Assembly (NCBI GenBank): GCA_013076295.1
Contig: RQOL01000876.1
Span: 6,014,001 to 6,078,000 of the forward strand
Direction of reading: 5' to 3'
DNA: 64,000 bases
Source of the DNA: Sanderia malayensis
Lineage: Eukaryota > Cnidaria > Scyphozoa > Semaeostomeae > Pelagiidae
The position numbers and the translations under genes are program-made. How positions within the stretch are numbered: the first letter of the stretch is position 1; the number at the start of each line of letters is the position of its first letter. This document shows, in pieces, positions 24,862-61,549 of the stretch. Below the pieces are notes generated by a model, which saw only the letters and a list, made by a program, of their open reading frames with translations, was not told where the DNA came from and did not search any database.

Positions 24862-24892
24862 TAGTTTGATGACATCAATTGTCATCAAACTA
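24862..24892. repeat. Perfect 13-base hairpin
   Basis: TAGTTTGATGACA and its complement enclose a 5-base loop. The same hairpin lies in the duplicated copy at 62582-62612. Its role is unknown. Confidence 0.6.
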
Positions 24893-35620: not shown

Positions 35621-35829
35621 TGTTTTGTTTATTACCTCTGGCCAGTTAGATTTTTTAAAGTTTTGAAGGCATTTGAACTTCCTTCTGAGAGGCTCTCTGT
35701 TTGGGCAACTTGGCTTCATTTGTTTTGCTAGACTGCTAGCTAACAACTTCTGGGGACGCTGTTTTGTTGTCCAACGAGACTGCATTTGCCACCACACGTG
35801 TTGCTGAAGACACTGGATCAAAATGCAAC

Positions 35830-42259: not shown

Positions 42260-42359
42260 NNNNNNNNNNNNNNNNNNNNNNNNNNNNNNNNNNNNNNNNN
42301 NNNNNNNNNNNNNNNNNNNNNNNNNNNNNNNNNNNNNNNNNNNNNNNNNNNNNNNNNNN
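42260..42359. other. Assembly gap of 100 N
   Basis: Exactly one hundred N bases, a conventional placeholder; the true gap length is unknown. ORFs reading through it are not real. The flanks are not obviously contiguous: the left side is the TTAA element, the right side (42360-42905) is AT-rich with nothing recognised. Confidence 0.95.
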
Positions 42360-43547: not shown

Positions 43548-43588
43548 ATACGGTGGCCCAAAAAGACTTTCAATTCAGTAGTAAGAGG
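43548..43588. repeat. Trace of the Rep/transposase unit left of the array
   Basis: TTTCAATTCAGTAGTAAGAG at 43569-43588 is identical to the last 20 bases of every array unit. Just before it, ATACGGTGGCC (43548-43558) is identical to the motif at 46151 inside the unit. Together they suggest a deleted remnant of an earlier unit. Confidence 0.6.
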
Positions 43589-43616: not shown

Positions 43617-43904
43617 ATCCTTGCCAAAAAGACTTGGAACGGTTGAAAATATTGCTAACTGAAACACAATACGCGGCCTCTTAGAGCACAAACAACAAAT
43701 GCTTGTCAGGTACCTCTCCCTCCCCTCCCCCAAAAAACAATGTTGGTTGTTGGTTGTAAGGCATGTAGCATACTCGTGAATAGCGATTACCCGCTGAAAA
43801 ATAGACACAGTGAACAAAGATCAACATTGTATCGGGGGAGGGGAAAAATTTTGCAGAACGGAATGAAAATATTAGTAGCGTTCCAGCATTTTTGGCCAGG
43901 ATTG
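43617..43904. mobile_element. Left flanking MITE of the array
   Basis: The ends C(A)ATCCTTGCCAAAAA and TTTTTGGCCAGGATTG are near-perfect inverted repeats of about 26 bases. It is non-coding and has a pyrimidine tract near 43710. Its right end abuts the first base of unit 1. A second copy in the same orientation lies at 61257-61549. Confidence 0.85.
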
Positions 43905-44566
43905 ACACGCTTTGAATACAAATCGTGCTGAAGCCTGTAATTTTTTTGAAAACCTCACGAAGTTAGACCTGTGAATCACGAATATAAAATTATTTTTGCA
44001 ATTTCACCTGTATCTTTAATGAAAATGACGTCATTTGGAGCCAAAACGGTCTATTTTTATGGTTTTGGTCATTTTACCCTACTTTCTCATAATGATTATG
44101 TTTTAATGTTCTTAGCATCTCTGGGCTCTCATAAATTGTGATTATTTATGTTTACGGACGCCTTTCAATTGCCTGCTGTGCTATACTTTATGTTTATGAG
44201 TGAAAAGTTGAATGTGTAAAATAACATGAAATCGAGGCTGTCGCTAGTAGCTCATTTTTCTAGAGAATAGAAAGTGTCAGCTGTGGCAAACTCAAAATTT
44301 CATCTGTAATAAGCAATCCATTGAATCGTCTTTTGCTATTTTTAGTTTAAAACCCCTGAGATGCTTCAAAAGCTATAGAAATAGCGTGAAAATTATCTAT
44401 TGTCCAGTCCGAGTCACTAGAGAACGACAAACAATAGCAAAGAACAATATCAGTGATGTAGTGCCGAATCTAGTTGTTTACAGCTACAATAACTGTTAAA
44501 TGTCGGGTCACAGCACAGGTTTAGTAGATATTAAGATCCAGTGAGAGACGCACTTCTAATTTCGTA

Positions 44567-45673
44567 ATGGCCTTTAAGAAGAAGATATGTTCCAAAACAC
44601 GAGCTCTAGCCTATTTAATGGTTGCCCAACAAGGTAAAAGCTTTCGAGAAGTATCAAGGATTCTGAAAATTTCACATTCATCTGTTTATCGATGCTATAC
44701 CGAAGGAATAGATTCTACTCAAAGAACAAAGAAGCAAGGAAATGAGAAAAAGAAGCGTGGACGGCCAAGAATTTTGTCAGAGCGACAAGTCTCGTACTTT
44801 TTACGAACATTTCATGCATTGCGTGCTGATGGTCGAATCCAACAGTAAAGGAAATAATGAATGAAGCTGGTGTTACGGATGGCAGCTACAGAACATATGT
44901 CCGTATACTTAATGATGCCGGGTATCGTAAGTTGCAGCCAAGAAAGAAGGGCTTGTTGTCTGTCAAAGATAAAGTCAGCCGCAAAAGGTTCGCTAGGCAA
45001 GCATTAAAGCAACACGAGGATAGTTTCTGGACAAAAGAAGTGGCGTTCTACTTAGATGGCGTATCATTTATACACAAATATAACCCATTTCAAGAAGCCT
45101 CAAAACCAAAAGGACGCATTTACAGAAAGCGAAGTGAAGGTCTGAGATACACAACAAGTGGCTCAAAGAATCTCGCCGGTGGCAGAAGATTTCATGTTCT
45201 TGTCGCTGTATCATACAATTCAGGCGTGATTATGGTGGAACCATATGAAAAAATGACTGGACAGTTCTTTGCAGACTTTGTTAGAAGCAAGCTTCCGCGT
45301 GCATTTATTGGAGCACGTGTTCAGTGCAGAAAAAGCAGAATGGCAAAGTTCTTCGTCATGGACAATGAGCCATGTCAGACTAGTAAGCTTGCCATGGATG
45401 CATTACACGATATCGGTTGCAACGTTATTGAGGATACCAGCAAGGTCACCAGACCTCAATCCAATTGAAAACGTTTTTCATAATGTTAAGCGTGCATTAC
45501 AGAACCAAGCATTGGCTAAGAAATTAACAAGAGAATCATATGAGGAGTTTTCAAGAAGAGTGTTGGATACACTATGGAACTTTGACAAAGACGTTATACA
45601 GAGAACAATAGATAACATGCCTCAGCGTATGAAGTTAATTGTTGCTACTAAGGGTGACAGAACAAAATACTGA
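44567..45673 (+). pseudogene. Unit 1 Tc1/IS630-type transposase, two frame breaks
   Basis: This is the same gene as at 48905, but with single-base length differences near 44834 (after the residues RADGR) and near 45417 (after HDIG). The first cuts the protein between the second DNA-binding domain and the catalytic core. The unit's 5' flank has four further one-base length differences from the other copies, so low sequencing accuracy here is possible. Confidence 0.85.
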
Positions 45674-46375
45674 AAATATACTAGAGCTTTTGTCTATTTA
45701 TTATTTTATCTCTCATTTTGTCGTTTCAAGTTGATATTTTGCGATGTGACATTTTTAACCTAATTGTATTTCTCTTCGTCAAGTGTATTCTGCTATGCTC
45801 TCTGCGCATTATTGCACGGTATTTCATGAACTGCTTGGATTTGAAATCTCATCGGAGTTTATGTTTACATACTGACAATTGTGTATAAACCATTAGCAAA
45901 AAGCAATGTGGTGCTCATGAAGGCCTAATTTCTCATTTCTAGAAATTTCCTATGACATGACAAATAAGAGAAACAACGATATCCACGGTTACCACGACGG
46001 CGGCCATTTACAAAGCGGATATTTAGCAGTACAATTAAGCAATATATTACTAATTTTGAGGTAAGATTCTCATCTTTATGCATCTGTTGTTTTTATGGCA
46101 TGTCTTTAAAAAGTATTTTTCAATTATCTCCCATTATTCATGCAAAACGTATACGGTGGCCAGTCATTTCTAAATGAAATTTGATATCTTCGTTTCTATT
46201 CTTTATTATTTACTGGCAACCGTACAAAAAACCCTCATAAGTGAAGTTTTAATGCGAGCAGACAAAAAATAGACAACACATGTGATTTATAACGATTGAA
46301 AATGTTATGCTATATCTAAATATGTGAGTATATATATTGAAAATTATATCAAACACAAAATTACTAAAAATGTTT

Positions 46376-46391
46376 CACGGTGGCCACCGTG
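46376..46391. other. Unit 1 perfect palindrome, candidate origin element
   Basis: CACGGTGGCCACCGTG is a perfect 16-base palindrome 44 bases beyond the Rep stop. The half-site ACGGTGGCC recurs as ATACGGTGGCC at 46151-46161, in the manner of Rep-binding iterons. Between them and the transposase stop a weak hairpin (AATTA 46033, TAATT 46051) has ATATATTAC in its loop, one base off the circular-virus nonanucleotide NANTATTAC. Origin function is inference. Confidence 0.4.
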
Positions 46392-46434
46392 GATAGCGTG
46401 AACAAAGCTTCGACCACAACACATTGTTGACATA

Positions 46435-47742
46435 TTATGCAATGAGCATCGCAAAGCAATTTGCACAGCAAGGAACCTCTTTGCATTCATCCACCTGAAG
46501 TTGATGACGTAATGCAAAATGTTTCCACCTCACATCCATCATTTCGGTTTCCCGCTCATCAATTGTCCCATTTTTTAAATATATCAGGGGTGCTTTGCTT
46601 GTGCAGAAAACTGGGGTATCTTTGATTAAGCAGATATCTTGCGAGTAGTGCGTCTTTGGAGCAGGAAAATGAACTAACTGTCCTTCCAGTAGCAGGAGCA
46701 TATCTGCCCAAGATATTATATTTCTTTCCCAGCGGAAGTCGTTCAAGAATATGACTTCTTTTTGTTCCACCCCGACCCATGCAAATGTTCCTGCAGCTGG
46801 GTTACAAAATGCGTCAAACACCTCTACGAGAGGGTTTAGCAAAAATGTCTTCCCGCAATTTGCTGGACCAGTAAGCAAGATATTCCGCCCTTTGCCCCTA
46901 CCTTTCTGCAGAAGATCCTTTACTGCCTTAGAAAAATCTGCGACATCAATGCCATTCCGCTCCAACACTTCGGTAGCACACTTTAGCCATTGCCTATCAC
47001 AAATGCAGGGCTTATCGAGGGCATTGGTTAGAATCTCCATTCTCAGCATGTTCTGTCTCTGCAAGGTCTGTTCTGCTGTTTCAGCATCCCACACAGTTGC
47101 AATAAATTCTACAATGGTCTTTGTAGACCTTTCAATGCAAAATTTGTACAAGGCGGGTTGTCCTTCTTTTCTCAGTGCATTAGCATGCTGCAGAAGGTGA
47201 ATTCTATCGCGAATGCTGTTTTTCACAATCAGTTCAGCAACCTCTAGCTTCCCCATGCGTTTTCCTTTTTTTTCCATTTTTTTGGTCACCTTCACATTTG
47301 TTGCTGCATAGGTCTTTGGCTTCACAACTACATCTGGGTGAGAATCACTGTAAAGCACATGCCTGTCTTCCTTCTTCACGTAGTTGTACGCACTATAGTA
47401 CCCGCCATGCCCAGAGAAGTTTACAGTAATACCATGGGTTTGCTGAATATGCTGTCTTACACGGCTCCAACGTGTTGGCCTGTCTAATAAAACAGCCATA
47501 TGATAATGTGGCGTGCCATCTTGATGCTCTTCTACACAGCAACACCAATGCTTAATTGAAGATGACGTCACTTCTGCAAATGCAGATGTCACTGCCTCTG
47601 CAAATCTTTTCTTATCGTACTCAGTTGTATTTGCTCTGCTCCAAGTTACTAAGTACGCCTGTCTTTTCATTTTGACAGCTAACTGTTCTGGCTCGAAATC
47701 TTCCTCGTTACTCATAATTTCATCATTATTATTGCAAGCCAT
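46435..47742 (-). CDS. Unit 1 Rep: HUH nuclease plus SF3 helicase
   Basis: 435 residues. Rolling-circle motif 1 is degenerate (AYLVTWSRAN, residues 29-38). Motif 2 is PHYHMAVLL with the metal-binding pair H79 and H81. Motif 3 is YNYVKKE with the likely nicking tyrosine Y121 and K124. A linker with basic residues (about 140-165) leads to an SF3 ATPase: Walker A GPANCGKT (292-299), Walker B EVIFLNDF (329-336) and motif C TPVFCTSK (376-383), where a Lys stands in place of the usual Asn. The C terminus is Cys-rich (ECKEVPCCANC). This is the layout of CRESS-DNA virus and plasmid Reps, which nick the origin and unwind DNA. It is intronless with an A at -3 and G at +4. The frame looks fully intact. 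Confidence 0.9.
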   Translation of the reverse strand: MACNNNDEIMSNEEDFEPEQLAVKMKRQAYLVTWSRANTTEYDKKRFAEAVTSAFAEVTSSSIKHWCCCVEEHQDGTPHYHMAVLLDRPTRWSRVRQHIQQTHGITVNFSGHGGYYSAYNYVKKEDRHVLYSDSHPDVVVKPKTYAATNVKVTKKMEKKGKRMGKLEVAELIVKNSIRDRIHLLQHANALRKEGQPALYKFCIERSTKTIVEFIATVWDAETAEQTLQRQNMLRMEILTNALDKPCICDRQWLKCATEVLERNGIDVADFSKAVKDLLQKGRGKGRNILLTGPANCGKTFLLNPLVEVFDAFCNPAAGTFAWVGVEQKEVIFLNDFRWERNIISWADMLLLLEGQLVHFPAPKTHYSQDICLIKDTPVFCTSKAPLIYLKNGTIDERETEMMDVRWKHFALRHQLQVDECKEVPCCANCFAMLIA

Positions 47743-48904
47743 CTTATCTATACGTCCACTCGTGTTACAGAGGCATCGAAACTAAAGAAATTATTATCCC
47801 TGCCAGTAAAGTCAACTCAGTTAGCAACGTGTGGATATTTACAGTGCATTGAGTGCTGGAACGGCATCAACTATCTCTTGCCGCATACTGTCGTCATTAC
47901 TTTGTGTCTATTCTCCCGCACATGCAACTTCCTGCTTAAGCCCATTTGTTAGACAGTTGGAATATATTTCATGAAAATGATAATACTAAACTTATAAACT
48001 CCATTATCCATCATATTACTGCAGAATTTCATGCAAGCAAAACATGCAGTGTTGGGCTTTGCCATGCACAGGGAAATGACCGTCAAAAGCAGGGTGTGGT
48101 CAAAAATGACGTCATTTTTTAAATATGATCATTCATAATACATCTATTATCAACAAATGTAATCCACGCTTGTTATTTGGTGATATAACTTATGTAGCTG
48201 CAAGTAAAAACAAAAATTTTCAATTCAGTAGTAAGAGACTACACGCTTTGAATACAAATCGTGCTGAAGCCTGTAATTTTTTTGAAAACCTCACGAAGTT
48301 AGACCTGTGAATCACGAATATAAAATTATTTTTGCAATTTCACCTGTATCTTTAATGAAAATGACGTCATTTGGAGCCAAAACGGTCTATTTTTATGGGT
48401 TTTGGTCATTTTTACCCTACTTTCTCATAATGATTATGTTTTAATGTTCTTAGCATCTCTGGGCTCTCATAAATTGTGATTATTTATGTTTACGGACGCC
48501 TTTCAATTGCCTGCTGTGCTATACTTTATGTTTATGAGTGAAAAGTTGAATGTGTAAAATAACATGAAATCGAGGCTGTCGCTAGTAGCTCATTTTTCTA
48601 GAGAATAGAAAGTGTCAGCTGTGGCAAACTCAAAATTTCATCTGTAATAAGCAATCCATTGAATCGTCTTTTGCTATTTTTAGTTTAAAACCCCTGAGAT
48701 GCTTCAAAAGCTATAGAAATAGCGTGAAAATTATCTATTGTCCAGTCCGAGGTCACTAGAGAACGACAAACAATAGCAAGAACAATATCAGTGACGTAGT
48801 GCCGAATCTAGTTGTTTACAGCTACAATAACTGTTAAATGTCGGGTCACAGCACAGGTTTAGTAGATATTAAGATCCAGTGAGAGACGCACTTCTAATTT
48901 CGTA
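47743..48904. promoter_or_regulatory. Divergent promoter region spanning junction 1-2
   Basis: About 1.16 kb between the Rep and transposase starts, containing the unit junction at 48238-48240. Two perfect ATGACGTCAT (CRE/ATF-type) palindromes flank the junction, at 48106 and about 48361. Both genes must be driven from here if transcribed from the integrated or circular form. No clear TATA box was identified. Confidence 0.45.
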
Positions 48905-50011
48905 ATGGCCTTTAAGAAGAAGATATGTTCCAAAACACGAGCTCTAGCCTATTTAATGGTTGCCCAACAAGGTAAAAGCTTTCGAGAAGTATCAAGGATT
49001 CTGAAAATTTCACATTCATCTGTTTATCGATGCTATACCGAAGGAATAGATTCTACTCAAAGAACAAAGAAGCAAGGAAATGAGAAAAAGAAGCGTGGAC
49101 GGCCAAGAATTTTGTCAGAGCGACAAGTCTCGTACTTTTTACGAACATTTCATGCATTGCGTGCTGATGGTCGAAATCCAACAGTAAAGGAAATAATGAA
49201 TGAAGCTGGTGTTACGGATGGCAGCTACAGAACATATGTCCGTATACTTAATGATGCCGGGTATCGTAAGTTGCAGCCAAGAAAGAAGGGCTTGTTGTCT
49301 GTCAAAGATAAAGTCAGCCGCAAAAGGTTCGCTAGGCAAGCATTAAAGCAACACGAGGATAGTTTCTGGACAAAAGAAGTGGCGTTCTACTTAGATGGCG
49401 TATCATTTATACACAAATATAACCCATTTCAAGAAGCCTCAAAACCAAAAGGACGCATTTACAGAAAGCGAAGTGAAGGTCTGAGATACACAACAAGTGG
49501 CTCAAAGAATCTCGCCGGTGGCAGAAGATTTCATGTTCTTGTCGCTGTATCATACAATTCAGGCGTGATTATGGTGGAACCATATGAAAAAATGACTGGA
49601 CAGTTCTTTGCAGACTTTGTTAGAAGCAAGCTTCCGCGTGCATTTATTGGAGCACGTGTTCAGTGCAGAAAAAGCAGAATGGCAAAGTTCTTCGTCATGG
49701 ACAATGAGCCATGTCAGACTAGTAAGCTTGCCATGGATGCATTACACGATATCGGTGCAACGTTATTGAGGATACCAGCAAGGTCACCAGACCTCAATCC
49801 AATTGAAAACGTTTTTCATAATGTTAAGCGTGCATTACAGAACCAAGCATTGGCTAAGAAATTAACAAGAGAATCATATGAGGAGTTTTCAAGAAGAGTG
49901 TTGGATACACTATGGAACTTTGACAAAGACGTTATACAGAGAACAATAGATAACATGCCTCAGCGTATGAAGTTAATTGTTGCTACTAAGGGTGACAGAA
50001 CAAAATACTGA
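48905..50011 (+). CDS. Unit 2 Tc1/IS630-type DD34E transposase
   Basis: 368 residues. The N terminus has a paired-like helix-turn-helix (about 12-45, SFREVSRILKISHSSVYRCY), the hinge RGRPR (64-68) and a second helix-turn-helix (70-125). The DDE core has D164 (FYLDGVSF), D266 (FFVMDNEPCQ) and E301 (RSPDLNPIENVF), with 34 residues between the last two, the Tc1-type spacing. The second motif lacks the His usual in DNAPxH. Length and order match Tc1 transposases (about 340). It would cut and join DNA at TA targets, yet the unit has no recognisable TIRs for it. ATG has G at -3 and +4. It is fully open and identical in units 2-4 as translated. Confidence 0.93.
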   Translation: MAFKKKICSKTRALAYLMVAQQGKSFREVSRILKISHSSVYRCYTEGIDSTQRTKKQGNEKKKRGRPRILSERQVSYFLRTFHALRADGRNPTVKEIMNEAGVTDGSYRTYVRILNDAGYRKLQPRKKGLLSVKDKVSRKRFARQALKQHEDSFWTKEVAFYLDGVSFIHKYNPFQEASKPKGRIYRKRSEGLRYTTSGSKNLAGGRRFHVLVAVSYNSGVIMVEPYEKMTGQFFADFVRSKLPRAFIGARVQCRKSRMAKFFVMDNEPCQTSKLAMDALHDIGATLLRIPARSPDLNPIENVFHNVKRALQNQALAKKLTRESYEEFSRRVLDTLWNFDKDVIQRTIDNMPQRMKLIVATKGDRTKY

Positions 50012-50713
50012 AAATATACTAGAGCTTTTGTCTATTTATTATTTTATCTCTCATTTTGTCGTTTCAAGTTGATATTTTGCGATGTGACATTTTTAACCTA
50101 ATTGTATTTCTCTTCGTCAAGTGTATTCTGCTATGCTCTCTGCGCATTATTGCACGGTATTTCATGAACTGCTTGGATTTGAAATCTCATCGGAGTTTAT
50201 GTTTACATACTGACAATTGTGTATAAACCATTAGCAAAAAGCAATGTGGTGCTCATGAAGGCCTAATTTCTCATTTCTAGAAATTTCCTATGACATGACA
50301 AATAAGAGAAACAACGATATCCACGGTTACCACGACGGCGGCCATTTACAAAGCGGATATTTAGCAGTACAATTAAGCAATATATTACTAATTTTGAGGT
50401 AAGATTCTCATCTTTATGCATCTGTTGTTTTTATGGCATGTCTTTAAAAAGTATTTTTCAATTATCTCCCATTATTCATGCAAAACGTATACGGTGGCCA
50501 GTCATTTCTAAATGAAATTTGATATCTTCGTTTCTATTCTTTATTATTTACTGGCAACCGTACAAAAAACCCTCATAAGTGAAGTTTTAATGCGAGCAGA
50601 CAAAAAATAGACAACACATGTGATTTATAACGATTGAAAATGTTATGCTATATCTAAATATGTGAGTATATATATTGAAAATTATATCAAACACAAAATT
50701 ACTAAAAATGTTT

Positions 50714-50729
50714 CACGGTGGCCACCGTG
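50714..50729. other. Unit 2 origin-like palindrome
   Basis: Same 16-base palindrome as unit 1; the related ATACGGTGGCC lies at 50489-50499. Confidence 0.4.
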
Positions 50730-50772
50730 GATAGCGTGAACAAAGCTTCGACCACAACACATTGTTGACATA

Positions 50773-52080
50773 TTATGCAATGAGCATCGCAAAGCAATTT
50801 GCACAGCAAGGAACCTCTTTGCATTCATCCACCTGAAGTTGATGACGTAATGCAAAATGTTTCCACCTCACATCCATCATTTCGGTTTCCCGCTCATCAA
50901 TTGTCCCATTTTTTAAATATATCAGGGGTGCTTTGCTTGTGCAGAAAACTGGGGTATCTTTGATTAAGCAGATATCTTGCGAGTAGTGCGTCTTTGGAGC
51001 AGGAAAATGAACTAACTGTCCTTCCAGTAGCAGGAGCATATCTGCCCAAGATATTATATTTCTTTCCCAGCGGAAGTCGTTCAAGAATATGACTTCTTTT
51101 TGTTCCACCCCGACCCATGCAAATGTTCCTGCAGCTGGGTTACAAAATGCGTCAAACACCTCTACGAGAGGGTTTAGCAAAAATGTCTTCCCGCAATTTG
51201 CTGGACCAGTAAGCAAGATATTCCGCCCTTTGCCCCTACCTTTCTGCAGAAGATCCTTTACTGCCTTAGAAAAATCTGCGACATCAATGCCATTCCGCTC
51301 CAACACTTCGGTAGCACACTTTAGCCATTGCCTATCACAAATGCAGGGCTTATCGAGGGCATTGGTTAGAATCTCCATTCTCAGCATGTTCTGTCTCTGC
51401 AAGGTCTGTTCTGCTGTTTCAGCATCCCACACAGTTGCAATAAATTCTACAATGGTCTTTGTAGACCTTTCAATGCAAAATTTGTACAAGGCGGGTTGTC
51501 CTTCTTTTCTCAGTGCATTAGCATGCTGCAGAAGGTGAATTCTATCGCGAATGCTGTTTTTCACAATCAGTTCAGCAACCTCTAGCTTCCCCATGCGTTT
51601 TCCTTTTTTTTCCATTTTTTTGGTCACCTTCACATTTGTTGCTGCATAGGTCTTTGGCTTCACAACTACATCTGGGTGAGAATCACTGTAAAGCACATGC
51701 CTGTCTTCCTTCTTCACGTAGTTGTACGCACTATAGTACCCGCCATGCCCAGAGAAGTTTACAGTAATACCATGGGTTTGCTGAATATGCTGTCTTACAC
51801 GGCTCCAACGTGTTGGCCTGTCTAATAAAACAGCCATATGATAATGTGGCGTGCCATCTTGATGCTCTTCTACACAGCAACACCAATGCTTAATTGAAGA
51901 TGACGTCACTTCTGCAAATGCAGATGTCACTGCCTCTGCAAATCTTTTCTTATCGTACTCAGTTGTATTTGCTCTGCTCCAAGTTACTAAGTACGCCTGT
52001 CTTTTCATTTTGACAGCTAACTGTTCTGGCTCGAAATCTTCCTCGTTACTCATAATTTCATCATTATTATTGCAAGCCAT
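50773..52080 (-). CDS. Unit 2 Rep (HUH + SF3)
   Basis: Intact and identical in translation to the unit 1 protein. It converges with the unit 2 transposase and is separated from it by 761 bases. Confidence 0.92.
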   Translation of the reverse strand: MACNNNDEIMSNEEDFEPEQLAVKMKRQAYLVTWSRANTTEYDKKRFAEAVTSAFAEVTSSSIKHWCCCVEEHQDGTPHYHMAVLLDRPTRWSRVRQHIQQTHGITVNFSGHGGYYSAYNYVKKEDRHVLYSDSHPDVVVKPKTYAATNVKVTKKMEKKGKRMGKLEVAELIVKNSIRDRIHLLQHANALRKEGQPALYKFCIERSTKTIVEFIATVWDAETAEQTLQRQNMLRMEILTNALDKPCICDRQWLKCATEVLERNGIDVADFSKAVKDLLQKGRGKGRNILLTGPANCGKTFLLNPLVEVFDAFCNPAAGTFAWVGVEQKEVIFLNDFRWERNIISWADMLLLLEGQLVHFPAPKTHYSQDICLIKDTPVFCTSKAPLIYLKNGTIDERETEMMDVRWKHFALRHQLQVDECKEVPCCANCFAMLIA

Positions 52081-53243
52081 CTTATCTATACGTCCACTCG
52101 TGTTACAGAGGCATCGAAACTAAAGAAATTATTATCCCTGCCAGTAAAGTCAACTCAGTTAGCAACGTGTGGATATTTACAGTGCATTGAGTGCTGGAAC
52201 GGCATCAACTATCTCTTGCCGCATACTGTCGTCATTACTTTGTGTCTATTCTCCCGCACATGCAACTTCCTGCTTAAGCCCATTTGTTAGACAGTTGGAA
52301 TATATTTCATGAAAATGATAATACTAAACTTATAAACTCCATTATCCATCATATTACTGCAGAATTTCATGCAAGCAAAACATGCAGTGTTGGGCTTTGC
52401 CATGCACAGGGAAATGACCGTCAAAAGCAGGGTGTGGTCAAAAATGACGTCATTTTTTAAATATGATCATTCATAATACATCTATTATCAACAAATGTAA
52501 TCCACGCTTGTTATTTGGTGATATAACTTATGTAGCTGCAAGTAAAAACAAAAATTTTCAATTCAGTAGTAAGAGTCTGACACGCTTTGAATACAAATCG
52601 TGCTGAAGCCTGTAATTTTTTTGAAAACCTCACGAAGTTAGACCTGTGAATCACGAATATAAAATTATTTTTGCAATTTCACCTGTATCTTTAATGAAAA
52701 TGACGTCATTTGGAGCCAAAACGGTCTATTTTTATGGGTTTTGGTCATTTTTACCCTACTTTCTCATAATGATTATGTTTTAATGTTCTTAGCATCTCTG
52801 GGCTCTCATAAATTGTGATTATTTATGTTTACGGACGCCTTTCAATTGCCTGCTGTGCTATACTTTATGTTTATGAGTGAAAAGTTGAATGTGTAAAATA
52901 ACATGAAATCGAGGCTGTCGCTAGTAGCTCATTTTTCTAGAGAATAGAAAGTGTCAGCTGTGGCAAACTCAAAATTTCATCTGTAATAAGCAATCCATTG
53001 AATCGTCTTTTGCTATTTTTAGTTTAAAACCCCTGAGATGCTTCAAAAGCTATAGAAATAGCGTGAAAATTATCTATTGTCCAGTCCGAGGTCACTAGAG
53101 AACGACAAACAATAGCAAGAACAATATCAGTGATGTAGTGCCGAATCTAGTTGTTTACAGCTACAATAACTGTTAAATGTCGGGTCACAGCACAGGTTTA
53201 GTAGATATTAAGATCCAGTGAGAGACGCACTTCTAATTTCGTA
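52081..53243. promoter_or_regulatory. Divergent promoter region spanning junction 2-3
   Basis: Filler TCTG at 52576-52579. It differs from the previous region at the C/T site near 53131 (GATGTAG here and in unit 1, GACGTAG in units 2 and 4). Confidence 0.45.
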
Positions 53244-54350
53244 ATGGCCTTTAAGAAGAAGATATGTTCCAAAACACGAGCTCTAGCCTATTTAATGGTT
53301 GCCCAACAAGGTAAAAGCTTTCGAGAAGTATCAAGGATTCTGAAAATTTCACATTCATCTGTTTATCGATGCTATACCGAAGGAATAGATTCTACTCAAA
53401 GAACAAAGAAGCAAGGAAATGAGAAAAAGAAGCGTGGACGGCCAAGAATTTTGTCAGAGCGACAAGTCTCGTACTTTTTACGAACATTTCATGCATTGCG
53501 TGCTGATGGTCGAAATCCAACAGTAAAGGAAATAATGAATGAAGCTGGTGTTACGGATGGCAGCTACAGAACATATGTCCGTATACTTAATGATGCCGGG
53601 TATCGTAAGTTGCAGCCAAGAAAGAAGGGCTTGTTGTCTGTCAAAGATAAAGTCAGCCGCAAAAGGTTCGCTAGGCAAGCATTAAAGCAACACGAGGATA
53701 GTTTCTGGACAAAAGAAGTGGCGTTCTACTTAGATGGCGTATCATTTATACACAAATATAACCCATTTCAAGAAGCCTCAAAACCAAAAGGACGCATTTA
53801 CAGAAAGCGAAGTGAAGGTCTGAGATACACAACAAGTGGCTCAAAGAATCTCGCCGGTGGCAGAAGATTTCATGTTCTTGTCGCTGTATCATACAATTCA
53901 GGCGTGATTATGGTGGAACCATATGAAAAAATGACTGGACAGTTCTTTGCAGACTTTGTTAGAAGCAAGCTTCCGCGTGCATTTATTGGAGCACGTGTTC
54001 AGTGCAGAAAAAGCAGAATGGCAAAGTTCTTCGTCATGGACAATGAGCCATGTCAGACTAGTAAGCTTGCCATGGATGCATTACACGATATCGGTGCAAC
54101 GTTATTGAGGATACCAGCAAGGTCACCAGACCTCAATCCAATTGAAAACGTTTTTCATAATGTTAAGCGTGCATTACAGAACCAAGCATTGGCTAAGAAA
54201 TTAACAAGAGAATCATATGAGGAGTTTTCAAGAAGAGTGTTGGATACACTATGGAACTTTGACAAAGACGTTATACAGAGAACAATAGATAACATGCCTC
54301 AGCGTATGAAGTTAATTGTTGCTACTAAGGGTGACAGAACAAAATACTGA
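53244..54350 (+). CDS. Unit 3 DD34E transposase
   Basis: Intact 368-residue frame, translation identical to unit 2. Confidence 0.92.
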   Translation: MAFKKKICSKTRALAYLMVAQQGKSFREVSRILKISHSSVYRCYTEGIDSTQRTKKQGNEKKKRGRPRILSERQVSYFLRTFHALRADGRNPTVKEIMNEAGVTDGSYRTYVRILNDAGYRKLQPRKKGLLSVKDKVSRKRFARQALKQHEDSFWTKEVAFYLDGVSFIHKYNPFQEASKPKGRIYRKRSEGLRYTTSGSKNLAGGRRFHVLVAVSYNSGVIMVEPYEKMTGQFFADFVRSKLPRAFIGARVQCRKSRMAKFFVMDNEPCQTSKLAMDALHDIGATLLRIPARSPDLNPIENVFHNVKRALQNQALAKKLTRESYEEFSRRVLDTLWNFDKDVIQRTIDNMPQRMKLIVATKGDRTKY

Positions 54351-55052
54351 AAATATACTAGAGCTTTTGTCTATTTATTATTTTATCTCTCATTTTGTCG
54401 TTTCAAGTTGATATTTTGCGATGTGACATTTTTAACCTAATTGTATTTCTCTTCGTCAAGTGTATTCTGCTATGCTCTCTGCGCATTATTGCACGGTATT
54501 TCATGAACTGCTTGGATTTGAAATCTCATCGGAGTTTATGTTTACATACTGACAATTGTGTATAAACCATTAGCAAAAAGCAATGTGGTGCTCATGAAGG
54601 CCTAATTTCTCATTTCTAGAAATTTCCTATGACATGACAAATAAGAGAAACAACGATATCCACGGTTACCACGACGGCGGCCATTTACAAAGCGGATATT
54701 TAGCAGTACAATTAAGCAATATATTACTAATTTTGAGGTAAGATTCTCATCTTTATGCATCTGTTGTTTTTATGGCATGTCTTTAAAAAGTATTTTTCAA
54801 TTATCTCCCATTATTCATGCAAAACGTATACGGTGGCCAGTCATTTCTAAATGAAATTTGATATCTTCGTTTCTATTCTTTATTATTTACTGGCAACCGT
54901 ACAAAAAACCCTCATAAGTGAAGTTTTAATGCGAGCAGACAAAAAATAGACAACACATGTGATTTATAACGATTGAAAATGTTATGCTATATCTAAATAT
55001 GTGAGTATATATATTGAAAATTATATCAAACACAAAATTACTAAAAATGTTT

Positions 55053-55068
55053 CACGGTGGCCACCGTG
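55053..55068. other. Unit 3 origin-like palindrome
   Basis: Same palindrome; related motif at 54828-54838. Confidence 0.4.
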
Positions 55069-55111
55069 GATAGCGTGAACAAAGCTTCGACCACAACACA
55101 TTGTTGACATA

Positions 55112-56419
55112 TTATGCAATGAGCATCGCAAAGCAATTTGCACAGCAAGGAACCTCTTTGCATTCATCCACCTGAAGTTGATGACGTAATGCAAAATGTT
55201 TCCACCTCACATCCATCATTTCGGTTTCCCGCTCATCAATTGTCCCATTTTTTAAATATATCAGGGGTGCTTTGCTTGTGCAGAAAACTGGGGTATCTTT
55301 GATTAAGCAGATATCTTGCGAGTAGTGCGTCTTTGGAGCAGGAAAATGAACTAACTGTCCTTCCAGTAGCAGGAGCATATCTGCCCAAGATATTATATTT
55401 CTTTCCCAGCGGAAGTCGTTCAAGAATATGACTTCTTTTTGTTCCACCCCGACCCATGCAAATGTTCCTGCAGCTGGGTTACAAAATGCGTCAAACACCT
55501 CTACGAGAGGGTTTAGCAAAAATGTCTTCCCGCAATTTGCTGGACCAGTAAGCAAGATATTCCGCCCTTTGCCCCTACCTTTCTGCAGAAGATCCTTTAC
55601 TGCCTTAGAAAAATCTGCGACATCAATGCCATTCCGCTCCAACACTTCGGTAGCACACTTTAGCCATTGCCTATCACAAATGCAGGGCTTATCGAGGGCA
55701 TTGGTTAGAATCTCCATTCTCAGCATGTTCTGTCTCTGCAAGGTCTGTTCTGCTGTTTCAGCATCCCACACAGTTGCAATAAATTCTACAATGGTCTTTG
55801 TAGACCTTTCAATGCAAAATTTGTACAAGGCGGGTTGTCCTTCTTTTCTCAGTGCATTAGCATGCTGCAGAAGGTGAATTCTATCGCGAATGCTGTTTTT
55901 CACAATCAGTTCAGCAACCTCTAGCTTCCCCATGCGTTTTCCTTTTTTTTCCATTTTTTTGGTCACCTTCACATTTGTTGCTGCATAGGTCTTTGGCTTC
56001 ACAACTACATCTGGGTGAGAATCACTGTAAAGCACATGCCTGTCTTCCTTCTTCACGTAGTTGTACGCACTATAGTACCCGCCATGCCCAGAGAAGTTTA
56101 CAGTAATACCATGGGTTTGCTGAATATGCTGTCTTACACGGCTCCAACGTGTTGGCCTGTCTAATAAAACAGCCATATGATAATGTGGCGTGCCATCTTG
56201 ATGCTCTTCTACACAGCAACACCAATGCTTAATTGAAGATGACGTCACTTCTGCAAATGCAGATGTCACTGCCTCTGCAAATCTTTTCTTATCGTACTCA
56301 GTTGTATTTGCTCTGCTCCAAGTTACTAAGTACGCCTGTCTTTTCATTTTGACAGCTAACTGTTCTGGCTCGAAATCTTCCTCGTTACTCATAATTTCAT
56401 CATTATTATTGCAAGCCAT
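55112..56419 (-). CDS. Unit 3 Rep (HUH + SF3)
   Basis: Intact 435-residue frame, translation identical to units 1 and 2. Confidence 0.92.
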   Translation of the reverse strand: MACNNNDEIMSNEEDFEPEQLAVKMKRQAYLVTWSRANTTEYDKKRFAEAVTSAFAEVTSSSIKHWCCCVEEHQDGTPHYHMAVLLDRPTRWSRVRQHIQQTHGITVNFSGHGGYYSAYNYVKKEDRHVLYSDSHPDVVVKPKTYAATNVKVTKKMEKKGKRMGKLEVAELIVKNSIRDRIHLLQHANALRKEGQPALYKFCIERSTKTIVEFIATVWDAETAEQTLQRQNMLRMEILTNALDKPCICDRQWLKCATEVLERNGIDVADFSKAVKDLLQKGRGKGRNILLTGPANCGKTFLLNPLVEVFDAFCNPAAGTFAWVGVEQKEVIFLNDFRWERNIISWADMLLLLEGQLVHFPAPKTHYSQDICLIKDTPVFCTSKAPLIYLKNGTIDERETEMMDVRWKHFALRHQLQVDECKEVPCCANCFAMLIA

Positions 56420-57585
56420 CTTATCTATACGTCCACTCGTGTTACAGAGGCATCGAAACTAAAGAAATTATTATCCCTGCCAGTAAAGTCAACTCAGTTA
56501 GCAACGTGTGGATATTTACAGTGCATTGAGTGCTGGAACGGCATCAACTATCTCTTGCCGCATACTGTCGTCATTACTTTGTGTCTATTCTCCCGCACAT
56601 GCAACTTCCTGCTTAAGCCCATTTGTTAGACAGTTGGAATATATTTCATGAAAATGATAATACTAAACTTATAAACTCCATTATCCATCATATTACTGCA
56701 GAATTTCATGCAAGCAAAACATGCAGTGTTGGGCTTTGCCATGCACAGGGAAATGACCGTCAAAAGCAGGGTGTGGTCAAAAATGACGTCATTTTTTAAA
56801 TATGATCATTCATAATACATCTATTATCAACAAATGTAATCCACGCTTGTTATTTGGTGATATAACTTATGTAGCTGCAAGTAAAAACAAAAATTTTCAA
56901 TTCAGTAGTAAGAGACATCTGACACGCTTTGAATACAAATCGTGCTGAAGCCTGTAATTTTTTTGAAAACCTCACGAAGTTAGACCTGTGAATCACGAAT
57001 ATAAAATTATTTTTGCAATTTCACCTGTATCTTTAATGAAAATGACGTCATTTGGAGCCAAAACGGTCTATTTTTATGGGTTTTGGTCATTTTTACCCTA
57101 CTTTCTCATAATGATTATGTTTTAATGTTCTTAGCATCTCTGGGCTCTCATAAATTGTGATTATTTATGTTTACGGACGCCTTTCAATTGCCTGCTGTGC
57201 TATACTTTATGTTTATGAGTGAAAAGTTGAATGTGTAAAATAACATGAAATCGAGGCTGTCGCTAGTAGCTCATTTTTCTAGAGAATAGAAAGTGTCAGC
57301 TGTGGCAAACTCAAAATTTCATCTGTAATAAGCAATCCATTGAATCGTCTTTTGCTATTTTTAGTTTAAAACCCCTGAGATGCTTCAAAAGCTATAGAAA
57401 TAGCGTGAAAATTATCTATTGTCCAGTCCGAGGTCACTAGAGAACGACAAACAATAGCAAGAACAATATCAGTGACGTAGTGCCGAATCTAGTTGTTTAC
57501 AGCTACAATAACTGTTAAATGTCGGGTCACAGCACAGGTTTAGTAGATATTAAGATCCAGTGAGAGACGCACTTCTAATTTCGTA
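56420..57585. promoter_or_regulatory. Divergent promoter region spanning junction 3-4
   Basis: Longest filler, ACATCTG, at 56915-56921; the rest matches the other divergent regions. Confidence 0.45.
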
Positions 57586-58692
57586 ATGGCCTTTAAGAAG
57601 AAGATATGTTCCAAAACACGAGCTCTAGCCTATTTAATGGTTGCCCAACAAGGTAAAAGCTTTCGAGAAGTATCAAGGATTCTGAAAATTTCACATTCAT
57701 CTGTTTATCGATGCTATACCGAAGGAATAGATTCTACTCAAAGAACAAAGAAGCAAGGAAATGAGAAAAAGAAGCGTGGACGGCCAAGAATTTTGTCAGA
57801 GCGACAAGTCTCGTACTTTTTACGAACATTTCATGCATTGCGTGCTGATGGTCGAAATCCAACAGTAAAGGAAATAATGAATGAAGCTGGTGTTACGGAT
57901 GGCAGCTACAGAACATATGTCCGTATACTTAATGATGCCGGGTATCGTAAGTTGCAGCCAAGAAAGAAGGGCTTGTTGTCTGTCAAAGATAAAGTCAGCC
58001 GCAAAAGGTTCGCTAGGCAAGCATTAAAGCAACACGAGGATAGTTTCTGGACAAAAGAAGTGGCGTTCTACTTAGATGGCGTATCATTTATACACAAATA
58101 TAACCCATTTCAAGAAGCCTCAAAACCAAAAGGACGCATTTACAGAAAGCGAAGTGAAGGTCTGAGATACACAACAAGTGGCTCAAAGAATCTCGCCGGT
58201 GGCAGAAGATTTCATGTTCTTGTCGCTGTATCATACAATTCAGGCGTGATTATGGTGGAACCATATGAAAAAATGACTGGACAGTTCTTTGCAGACTTTG
58301 TTAGAAGCAAGCTTCCGCGTGCATTTATTGGAGCACGTGTTCAGTGCAGAAAAAGCAGAATGGCAAAGTTCTTCGTCATGGACAATGAGCCATGTCAGAC
58401 TAGTAAGCTTGCCATGGATGCATTACACGATATCGGTGCAACGTTATTGAGGATACCAGCAAGGTCACCAGACCTCAATCCAATTGAAAACGTTTTTCAT
58501 AATGTTAAGCGTGCATTACAGAACCAAGCATTGGCTAAGAAATTAACAAGAGAATCATATGAGGAGTTTTCAAGAAGAGTGTTGGATACACTATGGAACT
58601 TTGACAAAGACGTTATACAGAGAACAATAGATAACATGCCTCAGCGTATGAAGTTAATTGTTGCTACTAAGGGTGACAGAACAAAATACTGA
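57586..58692 (+). CDS. Unit 4 DD34E transposase
   Basis: Intact 368-residue frame, translation identical to units 2 and 3. Confidence 0.92.
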   Translation: MAFKKKICSKTRALAYLMVAQQGKSFREVSRILKISHSSVYRCYTEGIDSTQRTKKQGNEKKKRGRPRILSERQVSYFLRTFHALRADGRNPTVKEIMNEAGVTDGSYRTYVRILNDAGYRKLQPRKKGLLSVKDKVSRKRFARQALKQHEDSFWTKEVAFYLDGVSFIHKYNPFQEASKPKGRIYRKRSEGLRYTTSGSKNLAGGRRFHVLVAVSYNSGVIMVEPYEKMTGQFFADFVRSKLPRAFIGARVQCRKSRMAKFFVMDNEPCQTSKLAMDALHDIGATLLRIPARSPDLNPIENVFHNVKRALQNQALAKKLTRESYEEFSRRVLDTLWNFDKDVIQRTIDNMPQRMKLIVATKGDRTKY

Positions 58693-59394
58693 AAATATAC
58701 TAGAGCTTTTGTCTATTTATTATTTTATCTCTCATTTTGTCGTTTCAAGTTGATATTTTGCGATGTGACATTTTTAACCTAATTGTATTTCTCTTCGTCA
58801 AGTGTATTCTGCTATGCTCTCTGCGCATTATTGCACGGTATTTCATGAACTGCTTGGATTTGAAATCTCATCGGAGTTTATGTTTACATACTGACAATTG
58901 TGTATAAACCATTAGCAAAAAGCAATGTGGTGCTCATGAAGGCCTAATTTCTCATTTCTAGAAATTTCCTATGACATGACAAATAAGAGAAACAACGATA
59001 TCCACGGTTACCACGACGGCGGCCATTTACAAAGCGGATATTTAGCAGTACAATTAAGCAATATATTACTAATTTTGAGGTAAGATTCTCATCTTTATGC
59101 ATCTGTTGTTTTTATGGCATGTCTTTAAAAAGTATTTTTCAATTATCTCCCATTATTCATGCAAAACGTATACGGTGGCCAGTCATTTCTAAATGAAATT
59201 TGATATCTTCGTTTCTATTCTTTATTATTTACTGGCAACCGTACAAAAAACCCTCATAAGTGAAGTTTTAATGCGAGCAGACAAAAAATAGACAACACAT
59301 GTGATTTATAACGATTGAAAATGTTATGCTATATCTAAATATGTGAGTATATATATTGAAAATTATATCAAACACAAAATTACTAAAAATGTTT

Positions 59395-59410
59395 CACGGT
59401 GGCCACCGTG
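59395..59410. other. Unit 4 origin-like palindrome
   Basis: Same palindrome; related motif at 59170-59180. Confidence 0.4.
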
Positions 59411-59453
59411 GATAGCGTGAACAAAGCTTCGACCACAACACATTGTTGACATA

Positions 59454-60760
59454 TTATGCAATGAGCATCGCAAAGCAATTTGCACAGCAAGGAACCTCTT
59501 TGCATTCATCCACCTGAAGTTGATGACGTAATGCAAAATGTTTCCACCTCACATCCATCATTTCGGTTTCCCGCTCATCAATTGTCCCATTTTTTAAATA
59601 TATCAGGGGTGCTTTGCTTGTGCAGAAAACTGGGGTATCTTTGATTAAGCAGATATCTTGCGAGTAGTGCGTCTTTGGAGCAGGAAAATGAACTAACTGT
59701 CCTTCCAGTAGCAGAGCATATCTGCCCAAGATATTATATTTCTTTCCCAGCGGAAGTCGTTCAAGAATATGACTTCTTTTTGTTCCACCCCGACCCATGC
59801 AAATGTTCCTGCAGCTGGGTTACAAAATGCGTCAAACACCTCTACGAGAGGGTTTAGCAAAAATGTCTTCCCGCAATTTGCTGGACCAGTAAGCAAGATA
59901 TTCCGCCCTTTGCCCCTACCTTTCTGCAGAAGATCCTTTACTGCCTTAGAAAAATCTGCGACATCAATGCCATTCCGCTCCAACACTTCGGTAGCACACT
60001 TTAGCCATTGCCTATCACAAATGCAGGGCTTATCGAGGGCATTGGTTAGAATCTCCATTCTCAGCATGTTCTGTCTCTGCAAGGTCTGTTCTGCTGTTTC
60101 AGCATCCCACACAGTTGCAATAAATTCTACAATGGTCTTTGTAGACCTTTCAATGCAAAATTTGTACAAGGCGGGTTGTCCTTCTTTTCTCAGTGCATTA
60201 GCATGCTGCAGAAGGTGAATTCTATCGTGAATGCTGTTTTTCACAATCAGTTCAGCAACCTCTAGCTTCCCCATGCGTTTTCCTTTTTTTTCCATTTTTT
60301 TGGTCACCTTCACATTTGTTGCTGCATAGGTCTTTGGCTTCACAACTACATCTGGGTGAGAATCACTGTAAAGCACATGCCTGTCTTCCTTCTTCACGTA
60401 GTTGTACGCACTATAGTACCCGCCATGCCCAGAGAAGTTTACAGTAATAGCATGGGTTTGCTGAATATGCTGTCTTACACGGCTCCAACGTGTTGGCCTG
60501 TCTAATAAAACAGCCATATGATAATGTGGCGTGCCATCTTGATGCTCTTCTACACAGCAACACCAATGCTTAATTAAAGATGACGTCACTTCTGCAAATG
60601 CAGATGTCACTGCCTCTGCAAATCTTTTCTTATCGTACTCAGTTGTATTTGCTCTGCTCCAAGTTACTAAGTACGCCTGTCTTTTCATTTTGACAGCTAA
60701 CTGTTCTGGCTCGAAATCTTCCTCGTTACTCATAATTTCATCATTATTATTGCAAGCCAT
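59454..60760 (-). pseudogene. Unit 4 Rep, broken in the helicase domain
   Basis: Residues up to about 349 are readable, including HYH, YVKK, Walker A and Walker B. One base fewer than the other copies near 59712 then shifts the frame, so motif C and the C terminus are lost. Three substitutions also occur: S62 to L, G104 to A and R178 to H. This is the most diverged Rep of the array. Confidence 0.9.
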
Positions 60761-61256
60761 CTTATCTATACGTCCCCTCGTGTTACAGAGGCATCGAAAC
60801 TAAAGAAATTATTATCCCTGCCAGTAAAGTCAACTCAGTTAGCAACGTGTGGATATTTACAGTGCATTGAGTGCTGGAACGGCATCAACTATCTCTTGCC
60901 GCATACTGTCGTCATTACTTTGTGTCTATTCTCCCGCACATGCAACTTCCTGCTTAAGCCCATTTGTTAGACAGTTGGAATATATTTCATGAAAATGATA
61001 ATACTAAACTTATAAACTCCATTATCCATCATATTACTGCAGAATTTCATGCAAGCAAAACATGCAGTGTTGGGCTTTGCCATGCACAGGGAAATGACCG
61101 TCAAAAGCAGGGTGTGGTCAAAAGTGACGTCATTTTTTAAATATGATCATTCATAATACATCTATTATCAACAAATGTAATCCACGCTTGTTATTTGGTG
61201 ATATAACTTATGTAGCTGCAAGTAAAAACAAAAATTTTCAATTCAGTAGTAAGAGA

Positions 61257-61549
61257 CAATCCTTGCCAAAAAGACTTGGAACGGTTGAAAATATTGCTAA
61301 CTGAAACACAATACGCGGCCTCTTAGAGCACAAACAACAAATGCTTGTCAAATACCTCTCCCTCCCCTCCCCCCAAAAAACAATGTTGGTTGTTGGTTGT
61401 AAGGCATGTAGCATACTCGTGAATAGCGATTACCCGCTGAAAAATAGACACAGTGAACAAAGATCAACATTGTATCGGGGGGAGGGGAGAAAATTTTGCA
61501 GAACGGAATGAAAATATTAGCAGCGTTCCAGCATTTTTGGCCAGGATTG
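61257..61549. mobile_element. Right flanking MITE of the array
   Basis: 293 bases with ends CAATCCTTGCCAAAAA and TTTTTGGCCAGGATTG, nearly identical to and in the same orientation as the left one. It begins within one or two bases of the end of unit 4 and ends exactly where homology to 23830 begins (TAGAAAATAAATTCC). Confidence 0.85.

What the first reader, a model, noticed from the sequence alone, without database searches (positions are those of the whole stretch)
43905..61255. Hybrid replicon: CRESS-like Rep and Tc1-type transposase in one 4.33-kb unit, four in tandem
Seen directly: each unit pairs an intact HUH + SF3 Rep (minus) with an intact DD34E transposase (plus), in an ambisense circular-replicon layout, repeated head to tail. 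Known: circular Rep-encoding viruses normally pair Rep with a capsid gene, and Tc1 elements are single-gene with TIRs. Inference: this is a capsid-less circular element that replicates by rolling circle and uses, or has borrowed, a DDE transposase for integration. I know of no named family with this pair.
Basis: partly seen in the sequence, partly recalled or inferred. Interest (0 to 1): 0.96.

Follow-up and report, generated by a model that had tools for sequence, protein, structure and literature searches.

The report
Replicon-transposon hybrid with hairpin ends
This stretch of a probably cnidarian animal genome holds four tandem copies of a mobile element that carries both a Tc1-type transposase gene and a gene for a predicted rolling-circle replication protein, the array bounded by repeats predicted to fold into hairpins; copies elsewhere in the genome sit mostly at TA sites, so it likely lives both as a cut-and-paste transposon and as a self-replicating circle, a combination we did not find in print.

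Summary
Four 4.34-kb units pair a HUH-SF3 Rep with a Tc1-like DD34E transposase, tail to tail. Rep is frame-broken in unit 4 and the transposase in unit 1.

The host genome is held. There the insertion form is mostly TA-FB-genes-FB-TA. The joined flanks of one insertion match an empty site at 100% with a single TA. Solo FBs, multimers, and gene-gene junctions with 0-2-nt FB remnants occur. Two further families (Rep 38-49% identical) have their own FB of the same design. Of 89 Rep loci, 67 have a transposase within 5 kb (0.6 expected), and Rep and transposase distances correlate.

Best reading: a composite-like transposon moved by the Tc1-type enzyme at FB ends, with FB likely also the Rep origin, so that circles and concatemers feed the arrays. 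Transposase action is well supported; rolling-circle replication is inferred.

The layout converges on KolobokP (Kojima and Bao 2022), but the enzymes differ. Ten literature searches found no paper on this pair.

The parts
43568..43587 (+). 20-bp remnant identical to the right end of a unit
   Evidence: exact match to 4 other places in the window
43617..43904 (+). left foldback (FB), inverted ends, begins at the third base of the full form, no TA on its left
   Evidence: 97.9% identical to the right FB; DNA fold z -3.3
43905..48239 (+). unit 1
44567..45670 (+). transposase of unit 1, frame-broken
   Evidence: tblastn pieces
46435..47742 (-). Rep of unit 1, 435 aa
48238..48241 (+). junction unit 1/2, no FB, A-C-T before ACACGC
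48240..52576 (+). unit 2
48905..50011 (+). Tc1-like DD34E transposase, 368 aa
   Evidence: Pfam DDE_3 7e-16 (unit-3 copy; 100% identical); fold Mos1/Sleeping Beauty
50773..52080 (-). HUH-SF3 Rep, 435 aa
52576..52579 (+). junction unit 2/3, TCTG directly after AAGAG
52577..56918 (+). unit 3
53244..54350 (+). transposase, 368 aa
55112..56419 (-). Rep, 435 aa
56915..56921 (+). junction unit 3/4, A-CA-TCTG: 2-nt FB remnant
56919..61256 (+). unit 4
57586..58692 (+). transposase, 368 aa
59457..60760 (-). Rep of unit 4, frame-broken
   Evidence: tblastn in two pieces
61257..61549 (+). right foldback (FB), CAATCC...GGATTG, followed by TA
   Evidence: (DNA fold z -5.5)

Best explanation
The array is four copies of a composite-like DNA element in whose insertion form a Tc1-type transposase gene and a predicted rolling-circle Rep gene lie between direct repeats of a ~293-bp foldback; the transposase is inferred to insert the foldback-genes-foldback unit at TA, and Rep is predicted to use the foldback as its origin to make circles and concatemers that would feed the tandem arrays. 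SHOWN: the usual insertion form is TA-FB-TCTG..genes..AAGAGA-FB-TA; one insertion has an exact empty site elsewhere in the assembly; solo FBs, FB dimers, multimers with FB at internal junctions, and unit-unit junctions with 0-2 nt of FB left all exist; three Rep families each have an FB with CAAT..ATTG ends, AGA and TCT on the gene sides, TA on the genomic sides read, and a shared inner stem sequence. INFERRED: the Tc1-type enzyme cuts at FB ends with a 2-nt stagger (remnants CA or C at unit-unit junctions; the matching CA missing at FB-FB joints), so any pair of FB ends can be mobilised: one FB alone, FB-unit-FB, or a multimer. PREDICTED, UNTESTED: Rep nicks in the FB; two direct FBs would act like the two origins of a partial dimer and release a unit+FB circle, and concatemers of that circle would give the transposase new FB-unit-FB substrates.
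For: TA flanks: of 42 FB copies read at 40 fetched places, right genomic flanks start TA in 22 of 23 distinct, left end TA in 13 of 19 distinct; TA is 6.7% of dinucleotides in the window. Empty site: 300 nt of joined C422 flanks match C835 at 100%, the 339- and 337-bp flanks overlapping there by exactly 2 bp. The two FBs of C422, C692 and C612 are 100% identical. Family 2 singles C616 and C807 show the same TA/AGA pattern; the family 3 array end reads FB|TA. Remnants at 6 clean unit-unit junctions in 4 loci. FB-FB joints (2 of 2) lack the last and the first two bases. FB folds: z -5.5, -8.3, -8.7; inner CAATGTTG/CAACATTG arms in 3 of 3 families. Linkage 67 of 89, 60 convergent. Rep/transposase distances correlate, r 0.93, 0 of 5000 permutations (11 pairs). 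Folds: Mos1 transpososome 1.7e-13; AAV Rep68 4.5e-11, TM 0.40. Pointers to circles or concatemers: contig C754 (23,254 bp) appears to be array from end to end (head, tail and one junction read, gene spacing between); in family 1, 4 of 4 unit-FB-unit junctions (three loci) lack the TCTG seen at left outer ends, which plain unequal crossover of single insertions does not give.
Against: No circle, single strand or nick was observed; no reads were available. Multimers could arise by unequal crossover or by transposition of a ready multimer; the internal FB junctions read in families 2 and 3 keep TCTG and fit crossover. 6 of 19 left flanks lack TA, including the window's own left FB, and the C781 4.15-Mb copy lacks it on both sides. 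Only 4 of 7 solo FBs have TA on both sides, and solos could be recombination products. No canonical CRESS nonanucleotide was recognised by eye. 22 of 89 Rep loci and 39 of 108 transposase loci were unpaired in the (truncated) lists, and 2 of 5 unpaired transposases checked had no Rep in the 3 kb read. The contig-length pile-up at 3.5-5 kb (31 of 119 Rep and 33 of 119 transposase rows) also fits collapsed repeats. Rep fold matches span both domains only loosely (pTM 0.58, rmsd about 21 for Rep68).
Confidence: 0.68

Rival explanations
1. A composite-like Tc1 transposon in which Rep is not a replicase of the element but an accessory nuclease or helicase; arrays arise by unequal crossover between the direct FBs, as proposed for KolobokP.
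For: All insertion features need only the transposase. KolobokP shows the same multimers and solos without a Rep. Internal FB junctions read in families 2 and 3 keep TCTG, as crossover predicts.
Against: The HUH histidines, Y121, the Walker lysine and N334/D335 are invariant in 24 aligned Reps, K124 in at least 90%, and Rep co-varies with the transposase. Unequal crossover between a left FB (followed by TCTG) and a right FB would keep TCTG at internal junctions; 4 of 4 unit-FB-unit junctions of family 1 lack it (three loci, one seen on two contigs).
Confidence: 0.2
2. An endogenous virus related to capsid-bearing RepE1 cressviruses or parvoviruses that lost its capsid gene and gained a transposase; the copies are relics without present replication.
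For: RepE1 cressviruses with capsids, and apparent endogenisation, are reported from sea anemone datasets. The Rep fold matches NS1, AAV Rep and E1.
Against: Identical FB pairs, open genes and a 100% identical empty site point to recent movement. Several diverged families keep the pair.
Confidence: 0.08
3. Chance neighbours or assembly artefact: a Rep relic and a Tc1 element side by side, multiplied by the assembler.
For: Haplotigs seem present (e.g. C774 shares flanks with the C303 locus) and single-base indels break two genes.
Against: 67 of 89 linked against 0.6 expected; different junctions in one array; the same architecture in three families.
Confidence: 0.03

Closest known systems
KolobokP (Kojima and Bao 2022, PMC9587614)
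   Same: Internal two-gene region between long terminal direct repeats that have their own inverted ends; solo repeats, (LTDR-INT)n-LTDR multimers, single-repeat excision with remnants; second nuclease beside a DDE transposase (abstract, section 8, first part of section 13 and passages read).
   Different: [quoted passage not shown] here Tc1-type DD34E, TA target and a HUH-SF3 Rep, and the repeats are foldbacks.
Tc1/mariner transposons (Mos1, Sleeping Beauty)
   Same: Transposase fold and DD34E, TA duplication, remnants compatible with a 2-nt stagger (the stagger of known members is recalled).
   Different: Two genes, direct repeats each with inverted ends, a Rep, tandem arrays.
RepE1 cressviruses (preprint, PMC11071296)
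   Same: Rep with E1-type helicase; reported from sea anemone datasets and apparently endogenised (section 12 and passages read).
   Different: Those carry capsid genes, and no transposase is mentioned in section 12; homology to our Rep was not tested.
AAV/parvovirus Rep-NS1 with hairpin terminal repeats
   Same: HUH-SF3 protein by fold; palindromic replication ends as an analogy (recalled).
   Different: Direct not inverted repeats, no VP-like ORF seen, TA duplications.
Teratorn (PMC10175614)
   Same: Precedent for a DNA virus genome fused with a DDE transposon (abstract and passages read).
   Different: 180-kb herpesvirus plus piggyBac.
Helitrons and Replitrons
   Same: HUH endonuclease of a eukaryotic mobile element (recalled).
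   Different: No DDE transposase and no TA duplication (recalled); not tested by alignment.

Membership tests
Tc1/mariner superfamily (enzyme) | DD34E catalytic triad and Tc1/mariner fold | tested here: met
   D164, D266, E301 with 34 residues between the last two; Foldseek Mos1 1.7e-13, Sleeping Beauty 9.6e-9
Tc1/mariner superfamily (enzyme) | TA target-site duplication | tested here: met
   Empty site with 2-bp overlap at one insertion; flanks 22 of 23 and 13 of 19
Tc1/mariner superfamily (element) | single transposase gene between simple terminal inverted repeats | tested here: not met
   Two genes; ends are direct FB repeats, each with its own inverted ends
KolobokP | INT between long terminal direct repeats that carry own TIRs, with solos and multimers | tested here: met
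KolobokP | Kolobok DDD/E transposase and His-Me finger nuclease | tested here: not met
   Pfam: DDE_3 and HTH models for the transposase, weak Parvo_NS1, REP_ORF2-G2P and Phage_GPA for Rep; target is TA. No separate His-Me search was made.
Cressdnaviricota / CRESS-DNA virus | HUH endonuclease plus SF3 helicase Rep | tested here: met
   Motifs; folds
Cressdnaviricota / CRESS-DNA virus | capsid gene | tested here: not met
   Beside Rep and transposase the longest unspliced ATG ORF is 149 aa, antisense to Rep; spliced genes not modelled
Cressdnaviricota / CRESS-DNA virus | stem-loop origin with nonanucleotide | tested here: inconclusive
   Foldback conserved, no shared nonanucleotide seen by eye
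Cressdnaviricota / CRESS-DNA virus | circular ssDNA genome | not testable with these tools
   no reads
Parvoviridae | linear genome with terminal hairpins and a VP gene | tested here: not met
   No VP-like ORF; FB repeats direct and integrated at TA
Helitron | HUH plus SF1 helicase, insertion without target duplication | tested here: not met
   SF3-type fold matches, TA duplication; Helitron definition recalled

The most novel reading that the evidence does not exclude
A class of animal mobile element with two engines on one set of ends: the replication origin of a rolling-circle replicon is itself a minimal Tc1-type transposon. Rep makes circles and concatemers from FB; the transposase cuts any FB-to-FB interval out of them and pastes it at TA. 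It is a capsid-less replicon that became a transposon, or the reverse, and a living link between HUH-SF3 viruses and cut-and-paste transposons.
Probability: 0.5. Interest if true: 0.93.

Novelty: new variant of a known kind. Interest (0 to 1): 0.85.

Why it matters
If right, replication and integration are joined in one DNA element without a capsid: Rep supplies copies, the Tc1-type enzyme supplies chromosomal insertion, and both act on the same foldback. That would explain how a cut-and-paste element multiplies without relying on host repair, give a second, independent case of the KolobokP layout, and offer a route by which virus-type Reps enter and stay in animal genomes. One protein collection holds 514 Rep and 839 transposase relatives; of the 120 listed in each, one Rep is named from Acropora and one transposase from Dendronephthya, so the proteins, at least, are widespread. 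Whether all of those relatives sit in such paired elements is not known.

Tried and rejected
Phage records, viral contigs and prokaryote genomes: no Rep relative; the transposase gave three 28-34% matches in viral contigs, not followed. Taking the 4.34-kb unit as the mobile unit was dropped once FB was found. Reading the 293-bp repeat as an unrelated MITE was dropped because FBs of the same design bound or join the gene units in three families. Terminal inverted repeats of the bare unit: not seen by eye. Contig-length matching of external pairs gave 8 equal lengths against a mean of 1.4 at offsets of 1-20 bases. I dropped four: 1771 and 2691 bp (too short for both genes) and 4631 and 3742 bp (different sources). 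The correlation with 14 pairs (three of the dropped ones included) was r 0.78, 0 of 5000; with 11 pairs 0.93, 0 of 5000; with 9 pairs without near-duplicates 0.79, 1 of 5000. Within the dropped matches, P0014 and P0015 (Reps 87% identical) would have transposases only 42% identical: either a false match or an exchange of transposase. COX1 for host identity: none found. HSP70: nearest named hit of normal length Rhopilema esculentum 78%, one unnamed EukProt hit 94%, so cnidarian is an inference. A seventh unit-unit junction (C781, L067) holds a decayed FB and was not counted. A second joined-flank search (C45 solo FB) gave related repeat copies matching 1-268 of 300 at 82-89%, no identical empty site. 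Literature: ten searches listed no paper that from title or abstract start pairs such a Rep with a Tc1-type transposase. Opened: passages of PMC7468197 and PMC6668415 besides the three papers under Closest known systems. The library holds no bioRxiv set, and Repbase was not searched.
Full report
WHAT IS THERE. The window (G000:C829:6014001-6078000, in an assembly of 184 Mb and 918 contigs) holds four head-to-tail units of 4337-4342 bp from 43903 to 61256. Each has a transposase gene on the plus strand and a Rep gene on the minus strand, tail to tail, with a ~761-bp convergent spacer and a ~1.16-kb divergent spacer in which the unit junction lies. Rep is open in units 1-3 and frame-broken in unit 4; the transposase is open in units 2-4 and frame-broken in unit 1. 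Beside these, the longest unspliced ATG ORF is 149 aa and antisense to Rep.

THE PROTEINS. The transposase matches DDE_3 (7e-16), has D164/D266/E301 with 34 residues between the last two, and folds like Mos1 and Sleeping Beauty (pLDDT 83). Rep has the HUH motif, YxxK and SF3 motifs. Of 24 aligned Reps, 13 match REP_ORF2-G2P, 7 the papillomavirus E1 helicase and 6 Parvo_NS1; one matches the geminivirus Rep domain at 0.0092. Its model (pLDDT 86, pTM 0.58) matches AAV Rep68 best, then large T antigen, E1 and NS1, with a CRESS-type Rep (Vientovirus) at rank 27 and some CRESS Reps among the viral models; TM-scores for the whole protein are 0.24-0.48. HUH-SF3 initiator is therefore a safe name; CRESS-like is loose.

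THE MISSED PART. A direct repeat bounds the array: 43617-43904 and 61257-61549, 97.9% identical. Each copy is a foldback (FB): outer arms CAATCC..GGATTG, an inner C-tract plus ACAATGTTG/CAACATTGT stem, DNA fold z -5.5 for the right copy and -3.3 for the left. The genome has 42 matches, a lower bound. I read 40 places holding 42 copies. They sort as 12 genomic|FB|TCTGACACGC or a near variant (left ends), 14 AAGAGA|FB|genomic or a near variant (right ends), 7 solo FBs, 4 unit|FB|unit, 1 genomic|FB|unit without TCTG (the window's left copy), and 4 copies in two FB-FB pairs.

INSERTION AT TA. Right genomic flanks begin TA in 22 of 23 distinct cases (20 TAG); left flanks end TA in 13 of 19 (11 CTA); TA makes up 6.7% of window dinucleotides. 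The six left exceptions are the window's own FB, C781 (4.15 Mb, which also lacks TA on the right), C25 and three solos; so 4 of 7 solos have TA on both sides. The decisive case is C422, FB-unit-FB at 15387-20311. Its joined flanks match C835 over 300 of 300 bases, and the 339- and 337-bp flanks overlap in C835 by exactly 2 bp. The sequence is a repeat: three further uninterrupted copies are 93-94% identical. The two FBs of C422, C692 and C612 are identical. The C422 copy is thus a recent insertion, absent from the matching C835 sequence, that duplicated TA and carried both FBs.

CUTTING AT FB ENDS. Unit-unit junctions without FB occur three times in the window and once each in C492, C632 and C781. 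They read AAGAGA-CA-TCTG (two), AAGAGA-C-TCTG (two), AAGAG-TCTG (one) and AAGAGA-C-T-ACACGC (one). These are what excision of one FB with a 2-nt stagger and trimming would leave. Conversely, both FB-FB pairs (L032, L044) have lost the last base of one copy and the first two of the next. That a Tc1-type enzyme did this is an inference from the remnants; deletion of a palindrome by slippage is a possible alternative that in my judgement would not so regularly stop at the FB boundary. Why family 1 junctions that keep FB lack TCTG (4 of 4, three loci), while the remnants keep it (5 of 6), is not settled; loss of TCTG may protect an FB from excision. Internal FB junctions read in families 2 and 3 keep TCTG (3 of 3).

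THE SAME DESIGN IN OTHER FAMILIES. A second family (Rep about 48-49% identical) has a 279-bp FB with ends CAATAGGGG..CCCCTATTG. Single insertions C616 and C807 read TA|FB|TCTGGTA..CCAGA|FB|TA. A third (Rep 38-47% in pieces, tandem in C466) has a 254-bp FB with AGA and TCTG on the gene sides and TA at the array end. DNA folds are z -8.7 and -8.3. The inner CAATGTTG/CAACATTG arms are in all three families.

LINKAGE. Merging 120 Rep rows and 112 transposase rows gives 89 and 108 loci. 67 Rep loci have a transposase within 5 kb, 60 of them tail to tail; 0.6 would be expected for scattered genes. Seven near pairs are not tail to tail, three of them (two on C440, one on C628) with both genes on one strand. 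Lists were truncated: of five transposases that looked alone, three have a Rep beside them (two tail to tail, one on the same strand) and two do not within 3 kb. Conversely, the Rep at C829:2.24 Mb is followed by only 177 bp of unit, a truncated copy. Across 11 pairs, Rep and transposase distances correlate at r 0.93 (0 of 5000 permutations); without near-duplicates, 9 pairs, r 0.79 (1 of 5000). Outside this genome there are 514 Rep and 839 transposase relatives, a few of them possibly from the same species. Of the 120 listed in each, one bears the name of Acropora millepora (Rep) and one of Dendronephthya gigantea (transposase). 31 of 119 Rep rows and 33 of 119 transposase rows have a longest contig of 3.5-5 kb, about the size of a unit.

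HOW IT LIKELY WORKS. The transposase treats FB ends as its ends. From a chromosomal or circular multimer it can take FB alone (solo FBs and remnants), FB-unit-FB (standard insertions) or more. Rep would nick at FB. A chromosomal FB-unit-FB then resembles a partial dimer with two origins, from which a unit+FB circle could be released and amplified as concatemers, giving fresh FB-unit-FB substrates. Pointers to circles or concatemers: arrays in several families, one contig that appears to be array from end to end (C754), and the shared TCTG-less junction of family 1. None proves replication. Without Rep activity, unequal crossover or transposition of multimers would have to suffice (the main rival).

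AGAINST KNOWN KINDS. The layout was described for KolobokP: direct repeats with own inverted ends, solos, multimers, repeat excision. The present element shares the layout and the pairing of a DDE transposase with a second nuclease, but not the enzymes or the target. It fails the single-gene definition of Tc1/mariner elements and the capsid criterion of CRESS viruses and parvoviruses. RepE1 cressviruses, some of them apparently endogenised, were reported from sea anemone datasets and could be where the Rep came from; I did not test that. Ten literature searches listed no description of this pair. I file it as a new variant of composite-like transposons; if Rep replication is shown, it would be a class of its own.

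HOST. HSP70 points to a cnidarian: Rhopilema esculentum at 78% is the nearest named hit of normal length, and two corals (recalled) hold named relatives of Rep or transposase. No species is claimed.

Noticed in passing
23830-26280 and 61550-64000: A 2451-bp stretch repeated at 99.96% starts immediately after the right foldback and runs to the window end; its left boundary coincides with the TA of the array.
   Followed up: partly
46376, 50714, 55053, 59395 (+15): A perfect 16-nt palindrome CACGGTGGCCACCGTG sits in the convergent spacer of every unit.
   Followed up: no
44022-44036 and 48104-48118 (and the other units): TGACGTCA (CREB/ATF-type motif, recalled) lies about 120 bp from each end of a unit; 2 in the family 1 divergent spacer, 5 in each of two family 2 spacers, none in family 3, 8 in 43 kb of control.
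   Followed up: partly
L069, L070: Family 2 carries three to four tandem ~355-bp repeats beside its foldback, so unit length varies with repeat number.
   Followed up: partly
G000 C440, C628, C522: One related group has transposase and Rep on the same strand, with gaps of 535-621 bp in C440 and C628.
   Followed up: no
7473-9021 +: A pogo-type element (CENP-B_N, HTH_Tnp_Tc5, DDE_1) split over two ORFs.
   Followed up: no
34314-38557 -: Three long ORFs in a row, one with a ubiquitin carboxyl-terminal hydrolase domain.
   Followed up: no
42260-42359: A 100-N gap about 1.2 kb left of the left foldback.
   Followed up: no
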